Below are positions 27,331 to 47,704 of a stretch of DNA of 64,000 bases, piece after piece. The notes beneath the pieces are model-generated. The model did no database searches. It was not told where the DNA came from and saw nothing but the letters and a program-made list of their open reading frames with translations. A program made the translations under genes and the position numbers. Each line of letters starts with the position of its first letter. Position 1 is the first letter of the stretch. The DNA lies in assembly GCF_004153445.1 (NCBI RefSeq), contig NZ_SDQC01000003.1:372001-436000 (forward strand), in the 5' to 3' direction. Origin of the DNA: Allopusillimonas soli. GTDB lineage: Bacteria; Pseudomonadota; Gammaproteobacteria; Burkholderiales; Burkholderiaceae_B.

Positions 27331-27387
27331 GGGCGAGTGAATGGTAGATATCAGCGGGCCGCGCTGCGAGCCCATCGAACAGGCCCA

Positions 27388-28155
27388 CTACAGCAGCGTC
27401 TCCATTTCCCGCGCAGCCTTGCTCAGATAGGGAAGTTGCTTTTTTGCGTGCTCCAGCGACATCCGTGCGGTGGGCGCGTGCATTGCCACCACAGCACGGA
27501 CATCGCCATGTGAATCGTACACCGGGACGGCAACAGCGATGAGCCCGGCAATGAACTCTTCCCTATCGGTCGAATAGCCGAGCTCACGGATCTCCCTGCA
27601 CTCGTTCTCCAGATCTACCAAACTCGTGATCGTGGAAGGGGTTTTGGCATCGAGCTTCAGATGAGCCACAATCTGCGAAAACTCTTTCGGAGGCAAATGC
27701 GCGAGCATCATTTTGCCGCTGGCAGTGCAATGCAGCGGAACATGTGAGCCCACATCGAGAATCAAACGCAGCGGCCATTGCGACTCTACCCGGTCCAAAT
27801 AGACCACCTCAGTGCCGTCCAGCGTCGTGAAATTGCAGGTTTCCTCGACCTGCTTGACAAGTTCAATCAGCACCTGGTGACGCAAACTCTGAATGGAACG
27901 GTGATTGAGCGTACTCAAAGCGAGCCTGCGCAAGGCACTGCCTATTCCATAGCTGCGTGCGTCGATGTCCCGAGCGAGAAATCCCATGTCCACTAGCTGC
28001 GCGCACAATCGGTGAGCGGTGCCCTTGGGGATGTCCAGTTGCTCTGTGATCTCCGCCAAGGATATCGCACGTCCATGCTTGGACACTACGTCCATGATGC
28101 GCAAAACCCTGCCGGCGGAGCTATTTTTCGGGTTCATTCCATTATTTGCAGTCAT
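27388..28155 (-). CDS. IclR-family transcriptional regulator
   Basis: This 255-residue protein has an N-terminal winged helix-turn-helix (about 13-75: RVLRIMDVVSKHGRAISLAEITEQLDIPKGTAHRLC) and the IclR effector domain (about 90-250). It is divergent from a GMC oxidoreductase gene with dyads in the gap (28236-28264), which suggests it regulates that gene and the TRAP genes behind it. The start (ATGACTGCAAATAATGGAATG) offers two ATGs, 28155 being the longer. The inducer is unknown. Confidence 0.9.
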   Translation of the reverse strand: MTANNGMNPKNSSAGRVLRIMDVVSKHGRAISLAEITEQLDIPKGTAHRLCAQLVDMGFLARDIDARSYGIGSALRRLALSTLNHRSIQSLRHQVLIELVKQVEETCNFTTLDGTEVVYLDRVESQWPLRLILDVGSHVPLHCTASGKMMLAHLPPKEFSQIVAHLKLDAKTPSTITSLVDLENECREIRELGYSTDREEFIAGLIAVAVPVYDSHGDVRAVVAMHAPTARMSLEHAKKQLPYLSKAAREMETLL

Positions 28156-28235
28156 ATGTCTATAAGTGGAACCAAAACCTCGGGAAACTTCCTAGCGAAA
28201 ACATGAAATTCCGCCTTGTGGGCGTTTCCTGAATT

Positions 28236-28264
28236 CTATAGTATGTATAGAACGTTTTGTTCCA
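28236..28264. promoter_or_regulatory. inverted repeats upstream of the GMC oxidoreductase gene
   Basis: CTATA-N5-TATAG (28236-28250) is directly followed by TAGAAC-GTTTT-GTTCCA (28248-28264), a nearly perfect dyad of the TGGAAC-N5-GTTCCA type seen at IclR-family sites. A related string, TGGAACCAAAAC, lies at about 28166 near the IclR start. They are operator candidates for the IclR regulator. Confidence 0.4.
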
Positions 28265-28289
28265 TTTTATCGTCTTCAATGGAATGGAT

Positions 28290-29918
28290 ATGTCGGGCAC
28301 GAAAGAATATTTCGATTTCATCGTGGTAGGCGCTGGCTCCGCAGGCTGCGTTCTGGCATCCCGACTAAGCCAAGATCAGAAAATAAGAGTATTGATACTG
28401 GAGGCGGGACCTCCGGATCATTCCATATGGCTGCATCTGCCCATAGGGTATGGAAAGACCATGTGGAGCTCCAAGTACAACTGGTGCCTGTACACAGATC
28501 CCGATCCGAATATGAACGGGCGCAACCTGTACTGGCCACGAGGAAAAACACTGGGCGGATCCAGTGCAATCAATGGCCTGATCTACATTCGTGGGCAAAA
28601 AGAAGATTACGACCATTGGGCGGCGCTCGGCAACAAGGGTTGGAGCTACGACGACGTACTGCCTTATTTCATCAAGGCGGAAACCAACGAGCGCGGCGCG
28701 TCCGATTATCACGGAGATACCGGCCCACTCAAGGTATCCAACATTCCCTGCAAGCACGAACTGATAGAAGCATTCATTCAGGGAGCGCAGCAAATAGGAA
28801 TTCCTCGCAATGAAGATTTCAACGGCGCCAGTCAGGAAGGGGCGGGATATTATCAACTAACCACATGGAAAGGATGGCGCTGCAGCACCGCAACGGGCTA
28901 CCTAAAGCCCGCACGAGGCCGCGCCAACCTGGTCGTCCGCAGCCGCGCTCGCGCCACGCGAATACTGTTCGATGACAAGCAGGCCGCAGGCGTAACGTAC
29001 CTGCACGAAGGAACTGAACATACGGCATCGTTGGCGGAGGGCGGCGAGGTATTGTTGTCCGCGGGTGCGATTCACTCACCCCAGTTGCTGCAATTGTCTG
29101 GCGTTGGCCCGCCAACCTTGCTGGAGCGCCTTGGCATTCCTGTCGTGGCGCCGCTACCAGGCGTGGGAAGTTCACTTCAGGATCACTTGCAGCTGCGCCT
29201 GGGATTTGAGTGCAGCAAACCGATAACCACAAACGACGAACTCAATTCCTGGCTGGGTAAATGCCGGATAGGCATGCAATGGCTGCTGCATCGGGGTGGC
29301 CCTCTGGCGGTAGGCATAAACCAAGGCGGCTGCTTCATGCGAGCGCTGCGCGGCAGAGATGAAAGACCCGACATCCAGTTCCATGTCGGAACCTTGTCGG
29401 CCGACATGGCAGGCGGCAAAGTGCATCCTTATTCCGGCTTCACCTTTTCAGTCTGCCAGCTTCGCCCCGAATCACAAGGTCATGTCCGAGCCAGATCCAT
29501 AAACCCGCTCGACACACCCGAAATACAACCAAATTATCTTGCGACGGATCTCGACCAGCGCACGGCTGTAGCAGCCATACGCCAGGCACGCGCAATAGCG
29601 CAATCGGATGCGATGCGCCCTTACGTCAAACGTGAGGTCAAGCCAGGCCTGGACAAGGTCACGGACGAAGATCTCCTGGAATTTGCGCGCGATGACGGAG
29701 CAACCATATTTCACCCAAGCAGCACATGCAAGATGGGGCCGCAAGGCGACGCCATGGCGGTCCTGGACGAACGGCTTCGGGTCCGCGGCGTGCATGGCTT
29801 GCGTGTCGTGGATGGTTCGGCCATGCCGACGCTGGTTTCAGGAAACACCAATGCACCCATTGTGATGATGGCTGAGAAAGCGGCAGACATGATTCAGGAA
29901 GACAGAAAAACAGCCTGA
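28290..29918 (+). CDS. GMC family FAD oxidoreductase (choline dehydrogenase-like)
   Basis: This 542-residue flavoprotein has the FAD motif GAGSAGCVLASRL near residue 14, the GMC signature around GGSSAINGLIYIRG (about 85-98) and GAIHSPQLLQLSG (about 250-262). The C-terminal active-site His is in HPSSTCKMG, and the NTNAPIVMMAEKAAD tail is present. There are close ATGs at 28257, 28284 and 28290; I prefer the one with GGA six bases upstream, but the choice is weak. GMC enzymes oxidise primary alcohols or polyols with an electron acceptor. The TRAP genes follow 35 bases downstream, so the protein probably oxidises the imported alcohol or sugar acid. Substrate unknown. Confidence 0.93.
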   Translation: MSGTKEYFDFIVVGAGSAGCVLASRLSQDQKIRVLILEAGPPDHSIWLHLPIGYGKTMWSSKYNWCLYTDPDPNMNGRNLYWPRGKTLGGSSAINGLIYIRGQKEDYDHWAALGNKGWSYDDVLPYFIKAETNERGASDYHGDTGPLKVSNIPCKHELIEAFIQGAQQIGIPRNEDFNGASQEGAGYYQLTTWKGWRCSTATGYLKPARGRANLVVRSRARATRILFDDKQAAGVTYLHEGTEHTASLAEGGEVLLSAGAIHSPQLLQLSGVGPPTLLERLGIPVVAPLPGVGSSLQDHLQLRLGFECSKPITTNDELNSWLGKCRIGMQWLLHRGGPLAVGINQGGCFMRALRGRDERPDIQFHVGTLSADMAGGKVHPYSGFTFSVCQLRPESQGHVRARSINPLDTPEIQPNYLATDLDQRTAVAAIRQARAIAQSDAMRPYVKREVKPGLDKVTDEDLLEFARDDGATIFHPSSTCKMGPQGDAMAVLDERLRVRGVHGLRVVDGSAMPTLVSGNTNAPIVMMAEKAADMIQEDRKTA

Positions 29919-29953
29919 AGCACGGGCATCTTAAAACCAATAGTAGGGAGCTG

Positions 29954-30508
29954 ATGGGTATGAATAATATACGCGAGCCGGCGCCGGCACTGCTCCGAGT
30001 CATTGCAGTGTTGGAGTTTCCATCCATCCTCATAGGCAAGCTGGCAGGATGGCTGATACTGCCGCTGGTCGGGGCGCTCGTTTATGAAGTCACCGCACGG
30101 TATGTCTTCAATAGCCCAACAATATGGGCGTATGACGTCACATATATGCTTGGAGGCACCCTGTTCATGTTGGGATCAGCTTATGCCCTGCAGACGGGAA
30201 GCCATGTCAAGGCTGACTTTCTTATGGCTGCGCTACGGCCGCGCTGGCAGGCCTTGATCGATGTCGTGCTCTATCTGGTTTTGTACTTCCCAGCCATGTT
30301 CCTGTTCCTGGACTACGGCCTTCGTTTCGCTGCGCAGTCCTGGTCGCAGCATGAAACCTATCCTCAAAGCCCGTGGATGCCCATCATCTACCCGTTGAAA
30401 ACCGTCATTCCAATCACCCTGGTGCTTCTTCTAATCCAAGGAGTGGCCGAACTGATCAAGGCGGTGTGGGTGCTGCGAAACGACGCCCCTTTTCCAAAAA
30501 GCGAGTAG
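29954..30508 (+). CDS. TRAP transporter small permease (DctQ-like)
   Basis: This 184-residue protein has four transmembrane segments and the DctQ pattern TARYVFNSPTIWAYDVTYMLGGTLFMLGSAYAL. An alternative start lies at 29960, better spaced from the AGGGAG site. It is translated just before the large permease (gap of 6 bases). It belongs to the mannitol/chloroaromatic-type TRAP branch by appearance. Substrate unknown. Confidence 0.93.
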   Translation: MGMNNIREPAPALLRVIAVLEFPSILIGKLAGWLILPLVGALVYEVTARYVFNSPTIWAYDVTYMLGGTLFMLGSAYALQTGSHVKADFLMAALRPRWQALIDVVLYLVLYFPAMFLFLDYGLRFAAQSWSQHETYPQSPWMPIIYPLKTVIPITLVLLLIQGVAELIKAVWVLRNDAPFPKSE

Positions 30509-30514
30509 CCAAAA

Positions 30515-31837
30515 ATGACTGATCCTATGCTGGGCCTCATTTCCTTGCTCGTGGCCGTCGTGGGCGTGCTGACGGGCTTTCCAATGGCCTTTGTGTTTAT
30601 CTTCGTCGCCTTGTTATTTGGCTTCATGGCGATCGGACAACAGGTCTTCAATCTGCTGACGTACCAGTTCTTTGCATTGATGACCAATGTCGAGCTGACG
30701 GCGGTCCCTCTTTTCCTGTTCATGGGTTATGTCCTTGAGCAATCGGGGTTGATGGATCGCATGTTCAAGGCCTTGCAAATGATTCTGGGCGGAATCAAAG
30801 GCTCACTTTATGTAATCGTTCTGGCAACCGCGACACTGTTCGCGGCAGCGACGGGCATCGTTGGTGCTTCCGTAACGGTTCTAGGCGTAATGGCCGCCCC
30901 CATGCTGATCCGGAGCAACTATGACACGCGCCTGTCAGCCGGCAGCATCGCCGCAGGTGGAACGCTCGGGATACTGATTCCCCCAAGCATCATGCTGATT
31001 GTTATGGGCCCGCTCGTGGGAGTGCCTGTATCTACCCTGTTCGCCGCAGCGGTTATCCCAGGACTGCTGCTGGCTGTTGTCTACATTATCTATACAATCA
31101 TTCGCTGCCATTTCAATCCCGCTCTCGGCCCCGCACTCAAATACGACGGGCCTCATCTATCCGCGCTGGCCAAAACGCGCGAACTGATAGTCGGGATAAT
31201 TCCCATCACCATCGTAATCATGGCAACGCTCGGGCTGATCATCGGCGGCATTACCACGCCTACCGACGCCGCGGCAACGGGCGCATTTGCATCGCTTGTG
31301 CTGACCGCCCTTTTCGGGCGCCTGAAATGGAAGCCGTTGAAGACAGCCGTATTTCGCACTCTGGAGACCAGCGCATTCATCATGTTCCTGATTGGCGCGG
31401 CGAACTTCTTTGGCGCCGTATTTGCAAGAATGGGCAGCGGACGGCTGATCACCGAAACCCTCACCGCGCTGCAGGTATCCCCCACGGTCATGCTGCTGCT
31501 GATGCTTTTCATGATATTCGTGCTTGGTGGGCCGCTGGAGTGGATTCCCATCGTACTGGTGGTGGTGCCCATACTGCTGCCCGTCGCGCAGGACCTCGGG
31601 TTCGACATGCTTTGGTTTTGTATCCTGATCGCCGTAACGCTGCAGACCTCGTGGCTGACTCCGCCCCTGGCACTGTCGTCATACTTCCTGAAAGGTGTCG
31701 TGCCTCAGTGGAGCATGAAAGACATTTACCTGGGCATGGTGCAATTTGTTGCTCTGCAGATCCTCGTTGTTTTCCTTCTCATAAATTTCCCCATATTGGT
31801 GCATTGGCTCCCGCAGGTCACCGGCCTGCTGGATTGA
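30515..31837 (+). CDS. TRAP transporter large permease (DctM-like)
   Basis: This 440-residue protein has about 12 transmembrane segments and DctM features (GFPMAFVFIFVALLFG at the start, GGITTPTDAAATGAFASL in the middle, and LTPPLALSSYFLKG near the end). It is the sodium-driven translocation subunit of the GMC-linked TRAP carrier. Confidence 0.95.
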   Translation: MTDPMLGLISLLVAVVGVLTGFPMAFVFIFVALLFGFMAIGQQVFNLLTYQFFALMTNVELTAVPLFLFMGYVLEQSGLMDRMFKALQMILGGIKGSLYVIVLATATLFAAATGIVGASVTVLGVMAAPMLIRSNYDTRLSAGSIAAGGTLGILIPPSIMLIVMGPLVGVPVSTLFAAAVIPGLLLAVVYIIYTIIRCHFNPALGPALKYDGPHLSALAKTRELIVGIIPITIVIMATLGLIIGGITTPTDAAATGAFASLVLTALFGRLKWKPLKTAVFRTLETSAFIMFLIGAANFFGAVFARMGSGRLITETLTALQVSPTVMLLLMLFMIFVLGGPLEWIPIVLVVVPILLPVAQDLGFDMLWFCILIAVTLQTSWLTPPLALSSYFLKGVVPQWSMKDIYLGMVQFVALQILVVFLLINFPILVHWLPQVTGLLD

Positions 31838-31947
31838 AGTACGCGTCAAGGAGAATGCCATGGCTTGAATCAATTTGAGTGTGGTTCTTTCACTCACGCC
31901 CTCAAATCAAAGGAACACACTGGAGGGTAGACTAAGGAGGAGTAGAA

Positions 31948-33078
31948 ATGCTCGACAAGACAAAAACCAGATTGGCTGGGGCTCTAATCGCATGCGCATC
32001 ACTGGGCTTGTGCGTGCCCGCAGCAGCGAATGCCGCGGACAAAGACATTCATGAGTTCTCCATCCAAACCGCAGTCCCATCTGCCAGTCTTTACTTCAAA
32101 CTGCTGCAGAAATTCTCAAAGCAAATCGACATCATGTCCAACGGCCGTCTTAAGGCGGAGGTGCTGGCCGCAGGCGCGGTAGTGGGGCCATTCCAGATTC
32201 TGGATTCCGTCAGCAACGGTGTCATCAAGGCTGGCTACGTCTGGCCCAATTATTTCTCCGGCAAGAATTCCGCCTACGTATTGTTCTCAAACGCACCTGC
32301 CAGTACGGGCCTGGACCAACGCAGCCTGGTTGCCTGGTACTACAACGGGGGAGGCGAGGCGCTATACCAAGAGCTGATGGACAAGATGCACTTCAACGTC
32401 AAAGCGTTCATGGTGCAGCCCATGGGGCCGGATCCCCTGGGCTGGTTCAAGGAGCCGATCGAGAGCATGGATGACTTTAAGAACTTCAAGTACCGCTCGC
32501 CTCCTGGCATCCCCGGGGAAACCTATAAAAACATGGGTGTTGCATCGGTGGCGCTTCCGGGCGGAGATATTGTGCCATCGGCCCAGCGTGGGGTTATTGA
32601 TGCCGCCGAGTGGATCGGCCCGGCAGATGATCGCAATCTCGGTCTTCAGAAAATCTGGAAATATTATTATTTACAAGGCCTGCACCAGCAGACCGACGTA
32701 GGCCAGATATTCATCAATGGAGATTTTTGGAAATCGTTGCCGCCCGATCTCCAGGAAATCATCAAAGTCGCGGCAAAGGCAAGCATCGCCGAAACATTCA
32801 ACGCCGACATCTACGATAATGCCATGGCTTTGCATCAGTTCCAGGACAAGGAGGATGTCAAGGTACTTGATACACCAGAGGACTATTACCCGAAATTCAT
32901 TGCCGCTGAAAGGAAAGTAACCGAGAAGTATGCGCAGGAGAATCCGTTCTTCAAAAAAGTCCTGGATTCACAAACCGAGTTCGCAAAAATGGTGTATCCA
33001 TATCGCTCGCGCATTCTGACCCTCTATGACAGGATGCTCAAAGCAGCTCACGAGCAGCACGAGGCGGAGAAGAAATAG
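31948..33078 (+). CDS. TRAP transporter substrate-binding protein (DctP-like)
   Basis: This 376-residue protein has a signal peptide ending AAANAA (about residue 30) behind AAGGAGGAG. It has the binding-protein core: VGPFQILDSVSNGVIKAGYVWPNYFSGKNSAYVLF, FKYRSPPGIPGE with the binding Arg, and QRGVIDAAEWIGPADD. It belongs to the TRAP group with the 'WIGP' signature of the mannitol/chloroaromatic type. The 110-base gap after the large permease holds a small imperfect stem. The ligand is not known. Confidence 0.93.
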   Translation: MLDKTKTRLAGALIACASLGLCVPAAANAADKDIHEFSIQTAVPSASLYFKLLQKFSKQIDIMSNGRLKAEVLAAGAVVGPFQILDSVSNGVIKAGYVWPNYFSGKNSAYVLFSNAPASTGLDQRSLVAWYYNGGGEALYQELMDKMHFNVKAFMVQPMGPDPLGWFKEPIESMDDFKNFKYRSPPGIPGETYKNMGVASVALPGGDIVPSAQRGVIDAAEWIGPADDRNLGLQKIWKYYYLQGLHQQTDVGQIFINGDFWKSLPPDLQEIIKVAAKASIAETFNADIYDNAMALHQFQDKEDVKVLDTPEDYYPKFIAAERKVTEKYAQENPFFKKVLDSQTEFAKMVYPYRSRILTLYDRMLKAAHEQHEAEKK

Positions 33079-33239: not shown

Positions 33240-33725
33240 TCAGCGACGAGAGACCTCAATTTCATTGCGAACTTCCTTAACGCCCGGGCAGTTTTTCGCC
33301 ATTAGTTCAGCATGCCGCCAGGCCTCCCGGTCAGGAAGAAAGCCCGTCAGACGAACACATCCCCTATTCACGTCAATCGACACGGCCTCATCGGCCAAGC
33401 CACTTTCCGCCAGGCTTGCGTGGATGCTCTCTCGTATCCGTTCATCATCCTGACTGTAGTCCGGTGGTGGGTAAATATGAGTCGGACTTTCGGGGTCGGG
33501 AGGTCTCTCACCCAGTTTCTGGTGCGCTCGCCCATAATCCCCCGCCTTGCCAAACTGTCGCCCCTCGGCGTAGGACCGGTAATCCACCTCCGCTTTTTCC
33601 CCCTGGGGCATGCGAGGGCTGCTGGGGATGCGCCCATCTTCAGTATTGCCTGCCGGCTGCCCATCGTGATCGCGTGGCCCGCCATCCGCCTCGCGGTTGT
33701 TACCCTGCTGCTTTCTCTCGTTCAT
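33240..33725 (-). CDS. BON domain protein
   Basis: This 161-residue protein starts at 33725 (CAGG, seven bases, ATG). The first 90 residues are hydrophilic, low in order, and rich in Gly, Asn, Arg and Pro. The C-terminal part (about 95-160) is a BON domain: DDERIRESIHASLAESG, ...VRLTGFLPDREAWRHAELMAKNCPGVKEVRNEIEV. BON domains bind membranes or phospholipid and occur in envelope stress proteins. It lacks a signal peptide. It is 47 bases downstream of the 75-residue gene, on the same strand. Confidence 0.8.
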   Translation of the reverse strand: MNERKQQGNNREADGGPRDHDGQPAGNTEDGRIPSSPRMPQGEKAEVDYRSYAEGRQFGKAGDYGRAHQKLGERPPDPESPTHIYPPPDYSQDDERIRESIHASLAESGLADEAVSIDVNRGCVRLTGFLPDREAWRHAELMAKNCPGVKEVRNEIEVSRR

Positions 33726-33772
33726 TTGATTACCTGTTTCCTCGTTGGCCCACATCACCACGCCAGGTCTCC

Positions 33773-34000
33773 CTACGTCTGGTAGCTGGCAATAATTTCG
33801 CCCTCAATGCGACCCGTGGCCTTCATGTCGTCCAATAGCAAGCGGGCGTGCTCTTCGCTCAGCGCCATGATCGTGGTGCCGAATGTAACGTCGACGCCAT
33901 GCCACACTATTTCGTGCGGTTTCCATATGCGTCCTTCCGCGTCGACATATGGCCGGCGCGTTACAAGAGACTTATAAGAAGGATATTCGGCAGCAGCCAT
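33773..34000 (-). CDS. conserved hypothetical small protein
   Basis: This 75-residue protein starts at 34000 behind AAGGGG (8-base gap). It is composed of a mixed alpha/beta sequence with W, Y and R (YVDAEGRIWKPHEIVWHGVDVTFGTTIMAL, then a helix). I recognise no family. It is the first of two minus-strand genes with the BON protein and probably stress-related. The frame is closed and codon use is normal. Confidence 0.65.
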   Translation of the reverse strand: MAAAEYPSYKSLVTRRPYVDAEGRIWKPHEIVWHGVDVTFGTTIMALSEEHARLLLDDMKATGRIEGEIIASYQT

Positions 34001-34285
34001 GCATGAACCCCTTGTGCCATAAGACGGTTCTTCGCAGGCGGATTGAGGTAATTCTTACCGCCTGTCCAAAGATTTTTCCAACCGCCGCCATAAGCCTGCC
34101 ACGTCGGAGTCGTATGCCATCCAATCGGCAAGCTACGGGTTCGATTATCAATGCCTCGATCCCCAGCAAATGTCGTTCCTCCAAGGCGGTGCTGCCAGGA
34201 TAAATCGCTTCTGAGGACGACCAAGGAGATACGCGGGCATGGGGTTTGCCGTGGATTAACGACTACATGCCCTGAAAGGTAAGTC

Positions 34286-34813
34286 ATGAGCATAGATTGG
34301 TCTGGGATGTTTGGGTTCTCCATGTCGCCGTGGGAACTGATGCTTCGCGGTACGGCTATGTATTGGTTTATCTTTATTGCGCTACGCGTGGCCGGACGAC
34401 GGGATCTGGGATCATTCAGCACTACAGACATGCTCTTGCTCGTGCTTATTGCGGACGCGGCACAGAACGGTATGGCCGCTCAATATAACAGCGTCACAGA
34501 GGGTGCATTGCTTGTTCTTACATTGGTGTTCTGGAGCGCTGCTTCCAACCGAATCGCATACTTCTTTCCTGCAACCCGCCCCTTCTTCGAGCCCCGCAGA
34601 ATACTGCTTATAAAGGATGGAAAGTTGCAACGGCGTGGAATGCGACGTGAGTATGTAAGCGAAGACGAGCTGATGGAGGAACTGCGGCTGCATGAGATCA
34701 ACAACGTTGCGGAAGTGCTGTATGCATATATCGAATCAACCGGCGATATCAGCATCAAGAAAAAATCGAATGAACCGAAGGATGCCTTCTGGCGACCTCC
34801 CAAAGACCCGTAA
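34286..34813 (+). CDS. DUF421 (YetF-like) membrane protein
   Basis: This 175-residue protein has three N-terminal transmembrane segments (about 15-35, 47-62 and 70-88), then the soluble DUF421 domain with RILLIKDGKLQRRGMRREYVSEDELMEELRLHEI (about 105-138). It matches the DUF421/YetF family in length and order. Function unknown. A small hydrophilic gene follows 45 bases downstream. The 285 bases before this gene hold nothing recognisable. Confidence 0.9.
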   Translation: MSIDWSGMFGFSMSPWELMLRGTAMYWFIFIALRVAGRRDLGSFSTTDMLLLVLIADAAQNGMAAQYNSVTEGALLVLTLVFWSAASNRIAYFFPATRPFFEPRRILLIKDGKLQRRGMRREYVSEDELMEELRLHEINNVAEVLYAYIESTGDISIKKKSNEPKDAFWRPPKDP

Positions 34814-34858
34814 GCGCGAAGGTGGAACTGAAGCAGCATTACGTCGAGGAGAAATATC

Positions 34859-35050
34859 ATGACTAAGGCCAGAATTGAGCCGGGAATCAAAAGCATCAAT
34901 CCGTCGAGAGAATCCGACTTGGAAAAGAACAAAGACAGAATACGCAGGGAGAAGGATGTCCTGCCTGAGCTCGGGCTCAAGCGTCCCGACAAATCCAATA
35001 AGCCTCAAGCGGACGCGCCACTTGGCACTGGCGTGGATTCAGACCAATGA
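34859..35050 (+). CDS. small hydrophilic protein, hypothetical
   Basis: This 63-residue frame (MTKARIEPGIKSINPSRESD...) starts behind CGAGGAGAAATATC. It is strongly charged and lacks any hydrophobic segment. I do not recognise a family. The good ribosome site and the 45-base spacing from the DUF421 gene support it as real; its composition resembles small stress-induced proteins. Confidence 0.55.
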   Translation: MTKARIEPGIKSINPSRESDLEKNKDRIRREKDVLPELGLKRPDKSNKPQADAPLGTGVDSDQ

Positions 35051-35087
35051 AGAGGTTTGTACGTTGATGACCGTTATTGGCTATCCG

Positions 35088-35327
35088 TCAAACATGCGAA
35101 AGCTGCGGATTAAAGCAGCGGAGTAAAGCGATGAATGGAGAACAGTTGTGATTTGCCTGTACCACGAACAAAGCGGAGAACATGGCCCAGGTGGTTGTGT
35201 CGAAAGGTAATAGATGCATCGCACCATGGGCGACCAGTACTGCACTGACAGTCTGCAGCGTAACTCTGCTGTCATCGCGTGCCAGCATGTCGGCTATCCG
35301 CGCCGTAGCCGAAGAAAATAGATGCAT
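35088..35327 (-). pseudogene. FUSC/aromatic-acid exporter N-terminal fragment
   Basis: A 79-residue minus-strand frame begins at 35327 behind AGGAAC. Its residues 20-58 (RVTLQTVSAVLVAHGAMHLLP... and TWAMFSALFVVQ) look like the first two membrane segments of FUSC/ArAE efflux proteins (the 'YWA..TALFVVQ' region). A normal member has 350-700 residues. No continuation is seen in other frames within 35040-35170, so the gene seems cut off. It may also be an old remnant that lost the rest by deletion. Confidence 0.45.
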
Positions 35328-35402
35328 GCCTCTTGTTCCTTGCCAGATGTAGCCAGGCATGCTGTTTGCGTGCATGACGCAATTGCCAGACAGGGGAGCG
35401 AC

Positions 35403-36398
35403 ATGGCCACACGCAGCAAAGCACGCAGTGCCGATACAACAGAAACAACTCGCAAGCAACAAGAGGTCCAGGCGCAGCAGGATAAAAAGGATGCCAAAAA
35501 GTCGGGTCAGAAGAAGGTTGCCGGGTCGGCACGCCAGACGGGCAGCCGGCGGCATCCCCAACCTCCGCTGCCTGAACAACACTTGAAGAAGCCCGGGCTT
35601 GAGCGAAACATGGTCCCGCGGCCTCAATACATGGCGCCAACGTATCGTGGCAGCGGCAAGCTTGAAGGATTCGCCGCCATCGTCACGGGCGGCGACTCCG
35701 GCATAGGCCGAGCCGTATCCATATTGTTTGCGCGCGAAGGAGCGGATGTAGCCGTTGTATATCTGGACGAACATGCGGATGCGGAAGAGACAGGGCGGGC
35801 TGTCGAAGCCGAGGGCAGGACCTGCCTGCTCATTCCGGGAGACGTGAAGGATCCGGAATTTTGCCGCAAGGCGGTGCAGGAAGCGATCGATGCCTTCGGC
35901 AAGCTCGACGTGCTCGTCAACAATGCAGGCTTTCAGGAGCATGCCGGCGCGCTGGAAGACATTACCGATGAGCGGTTCGACGAAACCATGCGCACGAACG
36001 TCTATGGCTATTTTTACATGGCGCGGGCGGCGGTTCCGTACATGAGCGCGGGCAGCAGCATCATCAACACCGGCTCAGTGACAGGCTTGCGAGGTCATGG
36101 CACGCTGCTTGACTACTCAAGCACCAAAGGCGCTATCCATGCATTCACCATGTCTCTGGCGTCGAACCTGATTAAGAAAGGCATACGCGTGAACGCAGTT
36201 GCTCCGGGCCCGATCTGGACGCCGCTCAATCCTGCAGACCAGCCGGCCAAGAAAATCAAGTCCTTCGGTGAAGGCACTTCCATGCAGCGACCGGGCCAGC
36301 CCGAGGAATTGTCTCCTGCGTATGTTTACCTGGCGTCTCCAGTATGTTCCAGCTTTGTCACCGGTATCGTCCTTCCGGTGACAGGAAGCCCCGGATAA
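35403..36398 (+). CDS. SDR family oxidoreductase, YghA-like
   Basis: This 331-residue SDR starts at 35403. The first 85 residues are basic and disordered (KARSADTTETTRKQQ...), followed by a PQYMAPTYRGSGKLEGFAA segment of the YghA/YhdF group. The NAD(P) motif is GGDSGIGRA, then NNAG, and the catalytic pair is YSSTK. The long N-terminal tail is unusual but typical for this subgroup (about 290-340 residues). It stands within a run of stress and envelope genes (BON, DUF421). Substrate unknown. Confidence 0.88.
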   Translation: MATRSKARSADTTETTRKQQEVQAQQDKKDAKKSGQKKVAGSARQTGSRRHPQPPLPEQHLKKPGLERNMVPRPQYMAPTYRGSGKLEGFAAIVTGGDSGIGRAVSILFAREGADVAVVYLDEHADAEETGRAVEAEGRTCLLIPGDVKDPEFCRKAVQEAIDAFGKLDVLVNNAGFQEHAGALEDITDERFDETMRTNVYGYFYMARAAVPYMSAGSSIINTGSVTGLRGHGTLLDYSSTKGAIHAFTMSLASNLIKKGIRVNAVAPGPIWTPLNPADQPAKKIKSFGEGTSMQRPGQPEELSPAYVYLASPVCSSFVTGIVLPVTGSPG

Positions 36399-36461: not shown

Positions 36462-38849
36462 CTATGGCTTCAGGTCAAGTACGTAGACGGGCGATGTCCC
36501 CGTCCGGCGACTGTAGTTCTGGAAGTAAAGGCGGTTCTGCTCTCTATCCATGCCCAGCACGCCTGGATAATCGTCTATGGCAAGCTTGTGCCAGTTGCTA
36601 CCGCCATCGTCCGAGTAGTAATAGGCCTCGGCCGACACGGAAAATTCGTCGCGAGCGCCGAAGCGCAACCAACGCGGCAACTTCAAGTCGCTGTCCACTT
36701 CGGCCACCAAGGTGCCCCGGGAGGCCCAAAAATTGCGGATTCTGCTTTTGCCCAGGAGCCCGAACGGATCAGGTGTATTCGGCAGGGGCTCCCAACGCAA
36801 GGTTTCAGCGTTCAAGCGCGCAATCGTCCCGTGCCGGGCGCCTTCGTGATCCAGCACGGCATATGCCGGCCCGCCTTGCGCCTGCGCCAATCCGTCAATA
36901 TAAAGATCATCGATATGGAGCACCTCGTCCACCGTCCAGCCAGCCCCGTGATGACTCAGCACCAGTCTGTCGGTACGCTTGGCTTGATGCCACCGGGACT
37001 TCCCCGCCTCGTCCTTGGGCGCATGGTAACCAACCATGCGGGAAACCCAGAGCACCACCTTTTCCTTCGAGATATAGGTCAGGTAATAGATCACACGCTG
37101 ATCCTGTTCCACATCGACCTGCGAGCCTGCCGGCAGGCTCTCCATAATGTCCTCGAGCGAACTAAGAGATTCAGAAGGTATGGCTATCGAATGAGCCGTA
37201 TCTCCTCCATCGGCCGACAGTGCAATATAGGGCCGGCGATCACCCCACTCATAGGGCGAGTAAGTTAGCCAAAGCTCGTCCCGGGAAACAAAATCGGCCT
37301 GAAAATGGGCGCCATTCAAATCAATACTGGAGAACGCTTTGCCCGTATATTCCGTCCAGTTGGCACCACCATCCGACGACTCGAAAGTAGCCGGCGGGTT
37401 CGCCGTATCGTTGCGCAGACTGGTCATCAGCAGCACACGCCGGGATTCAGGTACGGAAATTAGGCAGGCTTCGCCACGCACATAGAACAGAGGCTGCAGC
37501 GCGCCATCGGATGTCAGGCGCGAGAGCATTGTGAAATGGTCGGAGTAAGTCCGGTATGGAGGATTGTCCGGGCCCGCTACCAGCGCGGCGATATCCCGGA
37601 CAGCGCCGCTCTTCTCGAGCTTCTTCAAGCCTGACCAGAAATCGCCATATCCCAGATACCAGAGTTCTCCTCCCGCCCGAACCACGCCATCGCAACGCCC
37701 TTCATACGGCGTGCCGATCTGCGCCAGGTTCGCTTTATCAGCGGCGACAGTACGGTGAGGCTGCGAGCCTGTCCACCCCAGCTTTCCAGCGGCAATCACG
37801 CCGACGACGCCATAGAAAACAACCACCACCAGCCCGTTGGACATTGCCAGCATGGCACGCGGCAGCAGCGCCCGGTTTCCGGATTCACGCCGGGAACGCC
37901 GCCCACACACAATGACATACGCAACCCAGGTGGCCATTGCATTGGCTACCCATATCCATATGAGCCAGCCCCAGACCAGATGCATGAGGTCTTCGGGCCG
38001 GCGAAATGCATCCGAGGACAGAATCAAAGCGGCGAGCAAGCCGATCAGCGCATACGTGGCACCCAGCAACAAGGCGAGCAGCACGACAGGGATGGTGCGC
38101 CAAAGGCCACTTCTGCCTGGATCGCGCCACCACGCCACCACCCACACAGGCAGGGACAAGACAATGGGTGTGACCAAGATGGACCAATTGATGCTGACAC
38201 CAAGCGTACGCTCCCACTCGCCCACAAACATGACATAGTCACTGTCTGAAAACAGAACCAGATAAAGATGCGCCCAGCCCAGCCCTACCATGAAAATTGC
38301 AGTAAACAGAGAAAAAGCGAAAAACGCCCTCCTGCCCCTACTGTCCGTTGCGGAAGCATCTTTCTCCGGCGCAAAGCACAAGGCCGAAACAGGCAGCCAC
38401 GCCAGCAGAACCGTTGCCACGGTAGCGATTGGCGGTGAGAAGAACACGATATACAACAGCCGCTGGACCGGGTCGAAGTTCTCAAAGGCTGACATCGATC
38501 CGGCCATGGCAGAGCCCACGACGGCATAGATATACTCCAGCCCTGTTAGCAGCATCAGAAGCGCGAGAAAGAAATAGAGGGGCCAAAAACGGAAAACCCG
38601 GCCTTGCCTGGCATGCCGCTTTGGCGGCGTCGCAAGCAGCAACACGGGAATCAGGCAGAACAAGGCGCGAGCCGGGAAACTCAACCATTCCCAATGCGCG
38701 AGCAGCGTGGCCAGGCAACCGTCCTCGCCACAGTACTGAGCATCCTCCAGCCAGGCCCCTGCAAGGCGAACCAGGATGATGGCCACAGCCGCCAGCAACA
38801 TCATGACAAATACGACGGGCATCCTACGGGATGCCTGGGATTGCTTCAT
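36462..38849 (-). CDS. membrane protein with C-terminal Asp-box (BNR-like) region
   Basis: A 795-residue protein I cannot name. The first 355 residues hold about nine hydrophobic segments (roughly 10-32, 52-72, 87-110, 130-153, 172-197, 215-240, 253-277, 287-315, 335-355). The rest (about 360-795) is soluble. It carries repeated Asp-box motifs of sialidase/BNR-type propellers: SSDGGANW, SADGGD and SDDGGSNW. Such a fusion is rarely seen: probably an inner-membrane anchor plus a periplasmic or outside propeller. The start is behind a AGGAG-like site. Neighbours (SDR upstream on the other strand, ABC exporter divergent) do not tell a function. Confidence 0.75.
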   Translation of the reverse strand: MKQSQASRRMPVVFVMMLLAAVAIILVRLAGAWLEDAQYCGEDGCLATLLAHWEWLSFPARALFCLIPVLLLATPPKRHARQGRVFRFWPLYFFLALLMLLTGLEYIYAVVGSAMAGSMSAFENFDPVQRLLYIVFFSPPIATVATVLLAWLPVSALCFAPEKDASATDSRGRRAFFAFSLFTAIFMVGLGWAHLYLVLFSDSDYVMFVGEWERTLGVSINWSILVTPIVLSLPVWVVAWWRDPGRSGLWRTIPVVLLALLLGATYALIGLLAALILSSDAFRRPEDLMHLVWGWLIWIWVANAMATWVAYVIVCGRRSRRESGNRALLPRAMLAMSNGLVVVVFYGVVGVIAAGKLGWTGSQPHRTVAADKANLAQIGTPYEGRCDGVVRAGGELWYLGYGDFWSGLKKLEKSGAVRDIAALVAGPDNPPYRTYSDHFTMLSRLTSDGALQPLFYVRGEACLISVPESRRVLLMTSLRNDTANPPATFESSDGGANWTEYTGKAFSSIDLNGAHFQADFVSRDELWLTYSPYEWGDRRPYIALSADGGDTAHSIAIPSESLSSLEDIMESLPAGSQVDVEQDQRVIYYLTYISKEKVVLWVSRMVGYHAPKDEAGKSRWHQAKRTDRLVLSHHGAGWTVDEVLHIDDLYIDGLAQAQGGPAYAVLDHEGARHGTIARLNAETLRWEPLPNTPDPFGLLGKSRIRNFWASRGTLVAEVDSDLKLPRWLRFGARDEFSVSAEAYYYSDDGGSNWHKLAIDDYPGVLGMDREQNRLYFQNYSRRTGTSPVYVLDLKP

Positions 38850-43081: not shown

Positions 43082-44740
43082 ATGGCTGCCCTGCGTGTTG
43101 ACGACATTCTGATTGCGAGACCACGAGTGCCTACCTCTTCTCATGCCCTGTTGTCCGTGTTGGCGGCACATGGCGTAGATCGTATCTTTCTGGTCCCGGG
43201 AGAAAGCTACCTGGGAATTCTTGATGGCCTGAACGAATATCCGCACATCGATGTGGTGACTTGCCGACATGAGGCGGGGGCTGGCTTCATGGCCTGCGCC
43301 GATGGCCGATTGACGCGCCGGCCCGGCGTGGTCATGGTCAGCCGCGGCCCGGGCGCCAGCAATGCGGCCATCGCCATACATACCGCGCAGCAAGACGCCA
43401 TCCCGCTGATCGTGATCGTGGGTCAAGTGCCAAAATCGCACTTGCGCAAACATGCGTTCCAGGAAATCGACTACCAGCACATGTACGGGACCATCGCAAA
43501 GTGGGTAGTGGAAGTATCCTCGCCCCAGGCTTTAGGCGAGGCGGCATTCAAGGCGATACGCGTTGCAACAACCGGCACACCGGGCCCCGTCGTGCTGGTG
43601 GTGCCGGAGGATGTCCAGCAGCAGGATGTGGACGAATTCAGTTGGATATCCCCCGGGCTCGCACCCACCACAGCCGAGAGAGCCACCCGCGACGAAATAC
43701 GAACGCAGTTGCGGGATGCGCGCCGGCCCCTGTTGATTGCGGGCGGCATGATGGATCAACCAGGTGGACGCGCCGCACTGTTGGCGTTTGCGCAGGCATG
43801 GAATATCCCGGTAGCCGTCGCGTTCCGACGCCACGATCTGTTTCCCAACCGCAGCCCCCTATACGTCGGAGATCTAGGCTTGGCCAATCCGCGCGAGCAG
43901 ATCGAGGCATTCAGGGAATGCGACCTGATACTCGCGCTAGGCACGCGGCTCGATGATGTTACGACCCAGGGCTATCGGTTTCCCAACCTGCCGCAGCCGT
44001 CTCAGACACTGATTCACTGCTACCCGGATCCTGCCATTGTCGGCGCGCACTTTACGCCCCGGATCGGACTGGCATGCAACCCGGTGACGCTGGCCCGCGA
44101 TCTTATGCCCGAAGAACCCTTTGCTCCGGACGATGGGCGTCAAGCTTGGAACCACAGGTTGCGCGGCATCTACGAAAAGCTGGCAACCTGGCCCATTCAT
44201 AACAATGACCACGCGCTGGATTTTGTCGGCGTGGTGCGGGCCGTCCAACGGTACGCGCCGGAGGACGCCATCGTCAGCCTGGACGCGGGCACCTTTGCCG
44301 CACCCGTCTATCGGCATTTCCCGTTCATGCCGCCACAACGCCTCATGGCGCCTCTTTCGGGAGCCATGGGATATGGCGTTCCCGCCGCTGTTGCGGCCCA
44401 GCTGCGCCATCCCGATCGCAAAGTGATCTGCATGGTGGGCGACGGCGGATTCATGATGACAGGGAATGAAATGATACTGGCGGCCAAACGCGCGCTGCCG
44501 ATTCTATTCCTGCTGGCCAACAACCACCGTTACGGCTCCATACGGTTGCATCAAGATGCCCAATATCCCGGCCGCCATCTTGGGACGGACCTCTACAACC
44601 CCGATTTCCAGCATATCGCATCTGGTTTCGGGCTGCCCAGCAAAAGAATTTCCAGTCCGGAACAGATAGACGCCGCGATACAGGATGCCATGCGGAATCA
44701 GGGACCGCAGTTTTTGGAGTTCGCCACGCACCAACCATAA
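43082..44740 (+). CDS. thiamine pyrophosphate-dependent enzyme (acetolactate synthase-like)
   Basis: This 552-residue protein shows the three domains of the TPP family: PYR domain with the catalytic Glu in CRHEAGAGFMACADGR (about 62-77), the central domain and the PP domain with GDGGFMMTGNEMILAAKRALP...NN (TPP motif, about 452-480). It matches acetolactate synthase-type enzymes in size but is not a true IlvB by context: it lies between a divergent LysR and a TRAP transporter, with a class II aldolase downstream. It is probably a 2-oxoacid decarboxylase or carboligase in a catabolic route. The start (ATG 43082) lacks a clear ribosome site. Confidence 0.88.
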   Translation: MAALRVDDILIARPRVPTSSHALLSVLAAHGVDRIFLVPGESYLGILDGLNEYPHIDVVTCRHEAGAGFMACADGRLTRRPGVVMVSRGPGASNAAIAIHTAQQDAIPLIVIVGQVPKSHLRKHAFQEIDYQHMYGTIAKWVVEVSSPQALGEAAFKAIRVATTGTPGPVVLVVPEDVQQQDVDEFSWISPGLAPTTAERATRDEIRTQLRDARRPLLIAGGMMDQPGGRAALLAFAQAWNIPVAVAFRRHDLFPNRSPLYVGDLGLANPREQIEAFRECDLILALGTRLDDVTTQGYRFPNLPQPSQTLIHCYPDPAIVGAHFTPRIGLACNPVTLARDLMPEEPFAPDDGRQAWNHRLRGIYEKLATWPIHNNDHALDFVGVVRAVQRYAPEDAIVSLDAGTFAAPVYRHFPFMPPQRLMAPLSGAMGYGVPAAVAAQLRHPDRKVICMVGDGGFMMTGNEMILAAKRALPILFLLANNHRYGSIRLHQDAQYPGRHLGTDLYNPDFQHIASGFGLPSKRISSPEQIDAAIQDAMRNQGPQFLEFATHQP

Positions 44741-44774
44741 GCCCGGGAGTGGCAACAACAATGGAGACATCACC

Positions 44775-45317
44775 ATGGCTTTTCTTGAAAGAATCATCAT
44801 TTGGATAGAGCGAGTCTTTGATGTTGTAGCGGCACTGCTCATGATCGTGATCATGCTTATTGTGGTGCTGGACGTTTCCTTGCGCTACCTGCTCCATGCC
44901 CCACTGGTATGGGCCTATGACATGATCGGCCTGTATCTCATGGTGGGTGTATTTTTTCTATCCGTCTCAGGCACCTATGCAGCCCATAAGCACATAGGAC
45001 TGGACATCGTGGTGCAACATCTCGGTCCGCGCGGGCGGCGTTACGCTGAAATCTTCACCTCGGTGGTCAGCATTCCCCTCTTCTTCTTTATCACCAAGGT
45101 TGGCGCCGAACGCGCCTATATCAATTTCATCCACAACGACGCCACATCCGGCCTGGTGGCATGGCCAACCTGGATTGCCTCCATACTGGTGCCGTTGGGT
45201 ATAGGGCTGCTGCTGCTGCGATTGATATTCCGTTTGGCTGGCCAGATCGCAAGCCTGGCCACCGGACGGGATATGGTTGAGAACGCCCCGCTGATCACCA
45301 GTCAAGGCAGCGAGTAA
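44775..45317 (+). CDS. TRAP transporter small permease (DctQ family)
   Basis: This 180-residue protein starts at 44775 behind GGAGACATCACC. It has four transmembrane segments with the DctQ second-helix pattern (DVSLRYLLHAPLVWAYDMIGLYLM). It lies 34 bases after the TPP gene and 3 bases before the large permease. It is part of the third TRAP transporter of the window. Confidence 0.94.
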   Translation: MAFLERIIIWIERVFDVVAALLMIVIMLIVVLDVSLRYLLHAPLVWAYDMIGLYLMVGVFFLSVSGTYAAHKHIGLDIVVQHLGPRGRRYAEIFTSVVSIPLFFFITKVGAERAYINFIHNDATSGLVAWPTWIASILVPLGIGLLLLRLIFRLAGQIASLATGRDMVENAPLITSQGSE

Positions 45318-45320
45318 TTC

Positions 45321-46607
45321 ATGACGGCGATCTCCATTACCCTGCTCCTGTTTTTCATGATGGCCATGGGCGTACCTGTCGGCTTCGCCATGGGGGTGAG
45401 CGGAGCCGTTGGCCTGTATGCGGTGGGCAATTGGGACATGCTGCTGGGCGTGCTGGAGACCGTGCCGCTCTCCACGGTCAGCTCCTATGAAATGATCACG
45501 ATCCCGATGTTCCTGCTCATGGCCGAGCTGGTGCTCAAAAGCGGCATCGCGGATGATCTGTTCGACGCCGCAGCCGCATGGGTGGGCAGCCTGCGGGGCG
45601 GTCTAGGCATGGCCACAGCCATCGCGGGTGCCGGCTTCGGTGCCATTTGCGGAACCAGTACCGCCGCAGCCGCAACGCTGTCCGCCACAAGTCTTCCGGC
45701 CATGATCAAGCATGGATATGAGCCCAAGATGGCGGCTGGCGTCGTGGCCATTTCAGGCACGCTCGCCATGCTGATCCCGCCCAGCGTCGTGTTGATTATC
45801 TACGGCTTGCTGGCGGAAGCCAACATCGGGAGACTGCTGATCGCCGGCATCATTCCGGGCTTACTGATCGCCCTGACCATCATGCTGACGGTATATATCC
45901 TTGCAACGCTCAAGCCCTCTTCCGCGCCGGTGTCGCCCCGCAAGACCCTGTCCGAGAAAATCCACGTGCTCAAGGTCGTCGGACCGATGCTCGTCCTGAT
46001 GATGATGGTCACGGGGGTTATTTATACCGGCGTGGCCACACCCACCGAAGCCTCCGCACTGGGCGCCTTCGGCGCATTGTTGATTGCGCTTCTGCGCCGC
46101 AAAGCCACCGCAAGCGTGGTCCTGGATGCCGCCAAGCAGGCAGCCCAGGGCACCTGCATGATCGCCATGATTCTTATGGGCGCCAGCATATTCGGCTATT
46201 TCTTTACACTCACTTCGGTCACCCAGGATCTCGTCCAATGGGTAGGTGGCCTCCATATGCAGCCATGGCTGATCATGCTGGGTGTATTCGCGGTGTACAT
46301 AATCCTTGGCGCCTTCATGGACCAGATCGCCATCCTGGTGCTCACGGTGCCTGTCGTCTTGCCTGTCGTCATCGCACTCGGTTATGACCCCATCTGGTTT
46401 GGCGTACTGGTCATCGTGATCGCCGAGGTCGGCTTGTTGACCCCGCCCATGGGCCTGAACTGCTTCGTGGTGGCGTTTTATGCCAGGCGCCCCGTCACCG
46501 AGGTATTTGCCGGGATCTGGCCTCATGTGCTGGCCCATCTTGTGGCGATTGGCCTTCTACTGGCATTTCCACAAATCGTCTTGTGGCTGCCCTCCATGAT
46601 GAAGTAA
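45321..46607 (+). CDS. TRAP transporter large permease (DctM family)
   Basis: This 428-residue protein has about 12 transmembrane segments and the DctM patterns (GVPVGFAMGVSGAVGLY, MMMVTGVIYTGVATPTEASALGAF and LLTPPMGLNCFVVAFYA). It is the sodium-driven translocation subunit of the third TRAP carrier. Its start is preceded by the tail of the small permease gene (AGGCAGCGAG). Confidence 0.95.
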   Translation: MTAISITLLLFFMMAMGVPVGFAMGVSGAVGLYAVGNWDMLLGVLETVPLSTVSSYEMITIPMFLLMAELVLKSGIADDLFDAAAAWVGSLRGGLGMATAIAGAGFGAICGTSTAAAATLSATSLPAMIKHGYEPKMAAGVVAISGTLAMLIPPSVVLIIYGLLAEANIGRLLIAGIIPGLLIALTIMLTVYILATLKPSSAPVSPRKTLSEKIHVLKVVGPMLVLMMMVTGVIYTGVATPTEASALGAFGALLIALLRRKATASVVLDAAKQAAQGTCMIAMILMGASIFGYFFTLTSVTQDLVQWVGGLHMQPWLIMLGVFAVYIILGAFMDQIAILVLTVPVVLPVVIALGYDPIWFGVLVIVIAEVGLLTPPMGLNCFVVAFYARRPVTEVFAGIWPHVLAHLVAIGLLLAFPQIVLWLPSMMK

Positions 46608-46657
46608 GCACCCTGATTCTTATATGGCCGCAAGGCCGCCAACAAAGGAGACACACG

Positions 46658-47704
46658 ATGAAACGCCTAGCACGACATCCTCTTTTCTTAGCCGCTGCCG
46701 GCGCGTTGACGCTGGGCCTGGGCACAGCCGCCCACGCCGCGGACGACGCGCTCACGCTACGCATCGCCGACAGCCTGCCCAATGGCAGCTATATCTACAA
46801 GTTGGCCACCAAACCCTTCATGGACGAGGTCGAGAAACGCAGCAATGGCCAGATCAAGTTCAAATACTTTCCTGGGCAGCAACTTGGCAAAGCCAAGGAC
46901 ATGCTCAAGCTTACTCAAGCCGGCATGACAGACATCGGCTACGTCGGCCCGTCCTATGTGCGCGACAAAATGCCGCTGTCGTCCGTCTTCGAACTTCCGG
47001 GTGCGTTCTCGGACGACTCTTGCCAGGGGTTCACCGCCTTCTGGAACATGACCCATGACGGCGGCTTCCTGCAGAAGAACGAATGGGACACCAACAACGT
47101 CATTCCCATTCTGTCGGTCATCACTCGCCACCACATCTATGTCTCGAACGACAAGCCCATCCGCACACTGGATGATCTGAAGGGCCTGAAAATGCGAACA
47201 TCCGGCGGCGCAATGGCGCGCACCATGCAGGAGCTTGGCATGGTGCCCGTCAATGTTTCAGCACCCGAGACCTATGAAAGCATGTCCCGCGGCACGATAG
47301 ACGGCGCCTTTTACCCCGCTCAAAGCGCCTTTGACTACGGGCTGACAGATCTCATCAAAAGTGGCACCGAGACAAAGCACGTCGCCGGCGCGGTGCTGAC
47401 CTATGCCGTCAGCAAGAATACGTGGCGCAAACTCAGCCCCGAGCAGCAGAAAATCATCATGGATGTGGGCCACGAAGTCTCCACCACCAGCTGCAAGGGC
47501 TTTGATGCCGCCGAACAGAAGGCCATAGACCGCATGCATGAACTGGGCATCAAGACCATCAAGTTCGATGAGGCGGACAACAAGCGGGTGGACGAGGCCT
47601 TCCAACGCTCGTCGGAAAACTGGGCCAAGGCGTTGGATGAGCGCGGCAAGGCAGGCAGCAAGGCATTGGATGCCATGCGCAAGGCTGTCGCCGCTGTGCA
47701 ATAG
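46658..47704 (+). CDS. TRAP transporter substrate-binding protein (DctP family)
   Basis: This 348-residue periplasmic protein starts at 46658 behind AAAGGAG. The signal peptide ends in TAAHAAD (about residue 27). Binding-protein features are KMRTSGGAMARTMQELGMVPVNVS (binding Arg) and YESMSRGTIDGAFYP. The ligand is likely a carboxylate, as in most DctP proteins. It follows the large permease by 50 bases. Confidence 0.93.
   Translation: MKRLARHPLFLAAAGALTLGLGTAAHAADDALTLRIADSLPNGSYIYKLATKPFMDEVEKRSNGQIKFKYFPGQQLGKAKDMLKLTQAGMTDIGYVGPSYVRDKMPLSSVFELPGAFSDDSCQGFTAFWNMTHDGGFLQKNEWDTNNVIPILSVITRHHIYVSNDKPIRTLDDLKGLKMRTSGGAMARTMQELGMVPVNVSAPETYESMSRGTIDGAFYPAQSAFDYGLTDLIKSGTETKHVAGAVLTYAVSKNTWRKLSPEQQKIIMDVGHEVSTTSCKGFDAAEQKAIDRMHELGIKTIKFDEADNKRVDEAFQRSSENWAKALDERGKAGSKALDAMRKAVAAVQ

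What the first reader, a model, noticed from the sequence alone, without database searches (positions are those of the whole stretch)
36462..38849. Nine-helix membrane protein fused to an Asp-box propeller
About 355 residues of membrane helices are followed by about 440 soluble residues with at least three Asp-box motifs. I know no family with this layout. It could be a membrane enzyme or sensor that binds glycans or polymers outside the cytoplasm.
Basis: partly seen in the sequence, partly recalled or inferred. Interest (0 to 1): 0.5.

Follow-up and report, generated by a model that had tools for sequence, protein, structure and literature searches.

The report
Membrane-anchored propeller protein, possible toxin immunity
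A bacterial inner-membrane protein carries a large propeller-shaped domain on its outer side; distant relatives of that domain sit right behind genes for injected antibacterial pore-forming toxins, so it may be a self-protection (immunity) protein of a kind not described before.

Summary
An intact 795-residue ORF (36462-38849, minus) has nine predicted membrane helices, N-in/C-out, then a periplasmic beta-propeller with three Asp-boxes. Pfam, NCBIfam and PADLOC do not place it beyond one sub-threshold Asp-box. The long form is scattered: 7 full-length and 2 fragmentary copies in 268 genomes of its family, none in 4 sister species. The same propeller behind only the last helix occurs as shorter proteins. 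In two separate branches of the propeller superfamily a member lies in a type VI secretion (T6SS) cassette: VgrG > DUF4123 > BTH_I2691/VasX-type effector > three tandem propellers; and DUF4123 > BTH_I2691 effector > two ExIF > propeller > DUF6708. I favour a membrane-anchored orphan immunity-type protein against a T6SS pore-former, but only at 0.4: the host genome matched neither VipA nor BTH_I2691, and 19 of 21 tested propeller-bearing stretches gave no T6SS hit. The glycan enzyme/sensor reading has only weak, indirect support. The extra helices of the two long-form clades are not demonstrably homologous.

The parts
36462..38849 (-). Focal gene, 795 aa: nine-helix membrane part plus periplasmic Asp-box beta-propeller
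37794..38849 (-). Membrane part, residues 1-352 (nine predicted helices; helix 9 = 334-352 aligns with the single helix of the short relatives)
   Evidence: AF2 helical at low confidence
36465..37766 (-). Propeller domain, residues 362-795
   Evidence: AF2 pLDDT blocks 65-95; beta-propeller matches, best Z 17.5
37356..37379 (-). Asp-box 1, residues 491-498 (SSDGGANW)
37194..37217 (-). Asp-box 2, residues 545-552 (SADGGDTA, no Trp)
36591..36614 (-). Asp-box 3, residues 746-753 (SDDGGSNW); Pfam BNR at 744-755

Best explanation
An inner-membrane protein that holds a beta-propeller in the periplasm and acts as an (orphan) immunity-type protein against injected pore-forming T6SS effectors of the BTH_I2691/VasX kind: the propeller would bind the incoming effector at the periplasmic face of the inner membrane, and the helices would place it there and might themselves obstruct pore assembly. 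Shown: the layout, the periplasmic side by prediction, a conserved propeller family, and family members placed as candidate immunity genes in two T6SS cassettes. Inferred: that those members are the immunity proteins, that the function carries over to the focal protein, and the mode of action.
For: A profile of seven long forms alone, searched in 399 genomes of the order, matched 3 genomes: the window's own, G402, and G421 at two places (E 1.6e-22 and 5.1e-19). In G421 three tandem propeller genes (first against the other two 79.6 and 78.7% identical) follow a BTH_I2691 effector (NF041559 E 4.1e-99; VasX_N E 4.3e-21); if the first ATG is used the first overlaps the effector by 4 bp. DUF4123 and VgrG genes lie upstream, and in the ORF list no other gene follows the effector in that run. 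In G779 a member of a second, distant branch follows another BTH_I2691 effector (2.6e-173) and two ExIF-family genes. vgrG-adaptor-effector-immunity is the order reported for Tke5/Tki5, a BTH_I2691 pore-former that Tki5 neutralises and that is proposed to insert from the periplasm (PMC12909789, passages). Scattered carriage with two fragmentary copies suits an acquired resistance gene.
Against: The window genome has no match to VipA (PF05591) or BTH_I2691. VgrG, adaptor, effector and G779-neighbour queries hit only 2 of 21 propeller-bearing stretches given. Of 7 BTH_I2691 genes in 13 carrier genomes only 2 have a propeller relative nearby; one of the 5 negatives is cut by a contig end about 650 bases after the effector. 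The focal propeller is only about 24% identical to a G421 one over 297 residues (1.7e-9) and not reliably alike to the G779 one by single sequences (0.007). In G755 and G779 the short form sits beside genes that look by eye like hemA and prfA, as a resident gene would. dN/dS 0.21 in one long-form pair lies within that of four neighbouring genes (0.02-0.22), so there is no sign of an arms race. In the G779 cassette the ExIF and DUF6708 proteins are rival immunity candidates. The tree warns that the long G421 and Achromobacter/G779 branches may be misplaced.
Confidence: 0.4

Rival explanations
1. A general periplasmic binding or scaffold protein of the inner membrane (protein-protein docking, envelope upkeep) with a propeller family that T6SS cassettes recruited once or twice; the focal protein has nothing to do with T6SS.
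For: 19 of 21 propeller-bearing stretches given gave no hit to the T6SS queries; the short form keeps its place beside core-looking genes in two species of one genus; purifying selection in one long-form pair; the host genome lacks VipA and BTH_I2691 matches; the fold is a generic docking fold.
Against: Patchy carriage (7 full-length of 268 genomes, no match in 4 sister species) is unusual for housekeeping; the only contexts found that suggest a function are effector cassettes, in two branches.
Confidence: 0.42
2. Membrane enzyme or sensor whose propeller binds or cleaves glycans or polymers outside the cytoplasm.
For: Foldseek's first matches are propeller lyases and glycosidases (PL25, GH74); hexuronate-catabolism-like genes (by eye) lie about 9 kb away.
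Against: Those matches share only the fold (9-14% identity) and the second look ranks unrelated propellers as high or higher; no Glu or His and only two Arg reach 80% conservation in the propeller; no output domain; the membrane part has few invariant residues, though that alignment joins clades whose helices may not be homologous.
Confidence: 0.12
3. The long forms arose twice: two unrelated eight-helix domains were joined to the same anchored propeller, so the helices are only a membrane platform. Not exclusive of the other explanations.
For: hhalign between the eight-helix parts of the two long-form clades gives E 0.3, no better than four control membrane stretches against either clade (0.2-0.83), while the propeller parts give 3.5e-44; on the tree the two long clades do not form a supported group.
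Against: Similar helix number and orientation in both (8-9 peaks before the propeller in clade 2); one clade is represented by two sequences only, so the test is weak; the fork that holds the long clades and the short main clade is unresolved.
Confidence: 0.4

Closest known systems
T6SS immunity proteins of BTH_I2691/VasX-type pore-forming effectors (e.g. Tki5 for Tke5)
   Same: Place of the G421 and G779 relatives downstream of a DUF4123 adaptor and a BTH_I2691 effector; a membrane-anchored, periplasm-facing protein at the site of attack
   Different: No T6SS gene by the focal gene and no VipA or BTH_I2691 match in its genome; Tki5 itself was not compared by sequence or fold; five other BTH_I2691 loci looked at show no such propeller, one of them cut by a contig end
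Tsi1, T6SS immunity protein with a partial beta-propeller (PMC3391265, passages)
   Same: Propeller-like fold used as a periplasmic effector inhibitor
   Different: Tsi1 is a fragmented propeller of three sheets against a peptidoglycan hydrolase; here a full-size Asp-box propeller on membrane helices; no sequence relation shown
Tli3 (PF24316)
   Same: Very weak local Pfam match in one short relative, L032 (E 0.0023, 28 residues, below cut-off), and in one of seven long forms (best E 0.019)
   Different: The L032 match covers only the last Asp-box region; the fold of Tli3 'seems unique' per PMC9860674 (passages)
Asp-box/BNR propellers (sialidases, GH74, PL25)
   Same: Asp-box hairpins, propeller fold
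   Different: No conserved catalytic set found, 9-14% identity, membrane-anchored

Membership tests
T6SS immunity proteins | Gene adjacent to a T6SS effector | tested here: not met
   For the focal gene: no VgrG, DUF4123 or BTH_I2691-like hit in the 64-kb window; met for relatives in G421 and G779
T6SS immunity proteins | Neutralises its cognate effector | not testable with these tools
   needs co-expression or competition assay
T6SS immunity proteins | Located where the effector acts (periplasm/inner membrane) | tested here: met
   Predicted N-in/C-out, nine helices; hydropathy prediction only
T6SS immunity proteins | Homologous to an effector-linked candidate immunity protein | tested here: met
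   Long-form profile to G421 propellers E 1.6e-22; pairwise 1.7e-9
Tli3 (PF24316) | Profile match above the curated cut-off | tested here: not met
   No match listed for P0001 at E up to 10; best relative 18.7 bits against cut-off 27
Sialidase / GH33-type BNR enzyme | Conserved Arg triad with Asp and Tyr/Glu nucleophile pair (recalled) | tested here: not met
   By conservation in a 15-row alignment only: R444 and R628 alone among Arg reach 80%, no Glu does; BNR_2 (PF13088) has no match in the genome. Active-site geometry was not examined
Anti-phage defence proteins (PADLOC) | Profile match | tested here: not met
   0 families for each of 5 proteins at E up to 0.1
Any known fold for the membrane part | Structural match | tested here: inconclusive
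   AF2 of residues 1-357 with 7 sequences: pLDDT 51, pTM 0.36; too poor to search, not searched

The most novel reading that the evidence does not exclude
A new class of T6SS immunity protein: a full Asp-box beta-propeller carried at the periplasmic face of the inner membrane, in its long form fused to a nine-helix membrane body, kept as an orphan shield against BTH_I2691/VasX-type pore-formers by bacteria without T6SS of their own.
Probability: 0.3. Interest if true: 0.7.

Novelty: new variant of a known kind. Interest (0 to 1): 0.42.

Why it matters
If true, it adds a full beta-propeller to the folds used for effector immunity (a 2012 survey stated that propellers had not yet been found among polymorphic-toxin immunity proteins; PMC3482391, passage), links an unannotated membrane protein family to interbacterial competition, and gives a direct test: the G421 effector and its three propeller neighbours in laboratory E. 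coli. If not, it remains an unclassified nine-helix/propeller family that Pfam, NCBIfam and PADLOC do not recognise.

Tried and rejected
Profile libraries: Pfam, NCBIfam, PADLOC and PDB sequences give nothing for the focal protein beyond a sub-threshold Asp-box. PHROGs and the viral contig collection were not searched. The GPCR hit of the A2 profile (E 0.013) was set aside as a weak helix match. The 50 rows shown in each fold list hold no T6SS immunity protein by title; that is not evidence against a relation.

Plasmid records: no tblastn match for P0001, one G421 propeller or the G779 propeller at E 1e-3. The first genome-contig scan with P0001 alone found no relative; the alignment scan found seven loci.

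Synteny: none between the window and the other long-form loci apart from the gene itself and low-identity paralogues (a LysR, an SDR and an IclR-like protein, 27-38%). In the sister species G003 the ABC-transporter neighbour is kept at 85%, but no other window gene from beside it was found there and the focal gene is absent, so no clean empty site was seen.

Membrane part: a membrane-only profile matched 9 of 260 genomes: the 7 long forms, the G235 fragment and one weak hit (G074, 2.9e-4).

Rows left out of family counts: the G113 hit (4e-4, a transporter-like frame by eye); 15 of the 19 matching genomes (E 2.7e-5 to 9.5e-4) and 38 of the 40 (best E 8.9e-7 to 9.3e-4), short Asp-box-region matches that I took as generic without inspecting each.

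An arms-race signal was looked for in one pair and not seen.

Full report
Observation. The ORF at 36462-38849 on the minus strand is intact and 795 aa long. A hydropathy scan gives nine helices up to residue 352, with K/R-rich loops alternating with acidic ones, so that the N-terminus is inside and the long C-terminal part outside. Three S-x-D-x-G Asp-boxes lie at 491, 545 and 746. AlphaFold2 on an alignment of 15 relatives (A5) gives mean pLDDT 68.6; ten-residue blocks are 37-64 up to residue 360 and 65-95 after it, mostly 75-95. In the VIA-align second look at Foldseek's matches, residues from about 359 to 795 match many unrelated beta-propellers, best Z 17.5 (rmsd 4.0, 306 aligned), so the fold is clear and the function is not. 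The membrane part folded alone gave pLDDT 51 and is not interpretable.

Known families. For the focal protein Pfam gives only BNR at E 0.0066 (below cut-off), NCBIfam and PADLOC nothing, PDB sequences nothing meaningful. The profile of seven long forms also finds nothing useful in PDB sequences, and Pfam on its seven members finds only weak matches, BNR in 6 of 7.

Relatives with the same layout. Among 268 genomes of the same family, 17 matched the first profile: 7 full-length long forms including the window's own, 2 fragments (G235, G159), 7 in genus g4 that prove to be 467-485 aa proteins with one N-terminal helix, and 1 transporter-like frame left out. The four other species of the genus had no match. 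13 and 4, Schauerella fraxinea and Achromobacter aestuarii; G012 is unnamed. Schauerella and A. aestuarii share neighbours with each other; otherwise neighbours differ from locus to locus. For that pair dN/dS is 0.21 for the whole gene; the membrane part is 73.5% and the propeller 90.7% identical, while four neighbouring genes are 88-98% identical with dN/dS 0.02-0.22. The gene is under purifying selection there; this does not show an arms race.

Short forms. Comamonas terrae, a Rhodocyclaceae genome, G402, G755, G779 and G1160 carry the propeller with, by alignment and by eye, only the last helix in front. A single N-terminal anchor agrees with a periplasmic propeller. A profile-profile test aligns the C-terminal parts of the two long-form clades over their whole length including the last helix (E 3.5e-44), but their eight other helices not convincingly (E 0.3; four control membrane stretches against either clade 0.2-0.83). 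Either the helices have diverged beyond recognition or were added twice; two sequences only represent the window's clade, so the test is weak.

T6SS link. The profile of seven long forms, before any T6SS member was in it, was searched in 399 genomes of the order and matched 3: the window's own, G402 (1.8e-46) and G421 at two places (1.6e-22, 5.1e-19). The G421 locus (L035) reads VgrG (TIGR03361 E 9.9e-135), DUF4123 protein (E 3.5e-12), BTH_I2691 effector (NF041559 E 4.1e-99; VasX_N E 4.3e-21), then three tandem propeller genes; with the first ATG, the effector stop and the first propeller start overlap in ATGA. In G779 a contig (L061) reads DUF4123 (partial frame), BTH_I2691 effector (2.6e-173), two T6SS_Burk_ExIF proteins, a propeller protein with one N-terminal helix, and a DUF6708 protein. 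On the tree of 19 propellers the G421 trio lies on the side of the window's clade, while the G779 protein groups with the Achromobacter-like 467-485 aa proteins (100/100); the tool warns that long branches, those of the G421 trio among them, meet here and may be misjoined. The order VgrG, adaptor, BTH_I2691 effector, immunity is that of the Pseudomonas putida Tke5/Tki5 locus, where Tki5 neutralises the pore-forming part (PMC12909789, passages only).

Limits of the link. tblastn with nine T6SS-cassette proteins against 25 stretches found hits in L035 and L061 and in L076 and L077, the last two fetched because they hold effectors. Of the 21 stretches that hold a propeller relative or fragment, 2 scored; they are 3 to 64 kb long, five further short g4 loci (L019-L023) were not given, and T6SS genes of other kinds would be missed. 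Of 7 BTH_I2691 genes in 13 carrier genomes, 2 have the propeller; the other 5 have none within the fetched stretch, one of which ends about 650 bases after the effector. VipA was found in 10 of 15 carrier genomes and not in the window genome, Candidimonas, G235, G402 or G085; BTH_I2691 in 4 of 13. The window protein would thus have to be an orphan. Orphan T6SS immunity genes that protect are reported elsewhere (PMC12247911, abstract and outline).

Function. In the 15-row alignment the Arg, Lys, His, Glu, Asp, Cys, Tyr or Trp positions of the focal propeller conserved at 80% or more are two Cys (386, 462, in all 15), the Asp-box Asp, Trp and Tyr and some further Trp and Tyr, and two Arg; no Glu, His or Lys. 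This speaks against a conserved hydrolase and for a binding scaffold, perhaps with a disulfide between 386 and 462 (inference). I put immunity-type function at 0.4, a general periplasmic scaffold at about the same, and a glycan enzyme or sensor at about 0.1; genes that look by eye like hexuronate catabolism at 24494-27330 are the one contextual hint for the latter.

Novelty. Searches of the paper library: propeller with immunity protein, T6SS and effector (17 papers, listing seen; passages on propellers read in PMC3391265, PMC3482391 and PMC10933484); Asp-box with immunity protein (0); BNR repeat with T6SS and immunity (0); Tli3/Tle3 (listing; passages of PMC9860674); BTH_I2691 (listing of 9); Tke5/Tki5. 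In what I saw there is no report of an Asp-box propeller immunity protein. Known precedents are propeller-like inhibitors such as Tsi1 and X-Tfi XAC2610. Most subscription papers are not held, so this is not proof.

Noticed in passing
L035:8543-12906 (G421:C97): Three tandem propeller genes (first against the others 79.6 and 78.7% identical) behind one BTH_I2691 effector, an apparent immunity gene array.
   Followed up: partly
L061:3755-5285 (G779:C132) and L076:6742-7470 (G012): Proteins of the family named 'putative type VI secretion system effector' (NF041560, ExIF; for G779, tblastn similarity for G012) stand directly downstream of BTH_I2691 effectors, in tandem in G779; the place looks more like that of immunity proteins than of effectors.
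   Followed up: no
L017-L023 (Achromobacter-like genus g4): A 467-485 aa one-helix propeller protein occurs in 7 genomes of one genus; in the two given to (L081, L082) no T6SS gene was hit. It is the nearest branch to the T6SS-linked G779 propeller.
   Followed up: partly
L015 and L016 (G235, G159): Fragmentary copies of the long-form gene.
   Followed up: no
window 24494-33078 and 44685-47704: Hexuronate-catabolism-like genes and two TRAP-transporter gene sets (by eye from the translations) in one window, one set next to a GMC oxidoreductase.
   Followed up: no
window 33240-36398: BON-domain protein, YetF-like (DUF421) protein and a short-chain dehydrogenase with a charged N-terminal extension lie together before the focal gene.
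   Followed up: no
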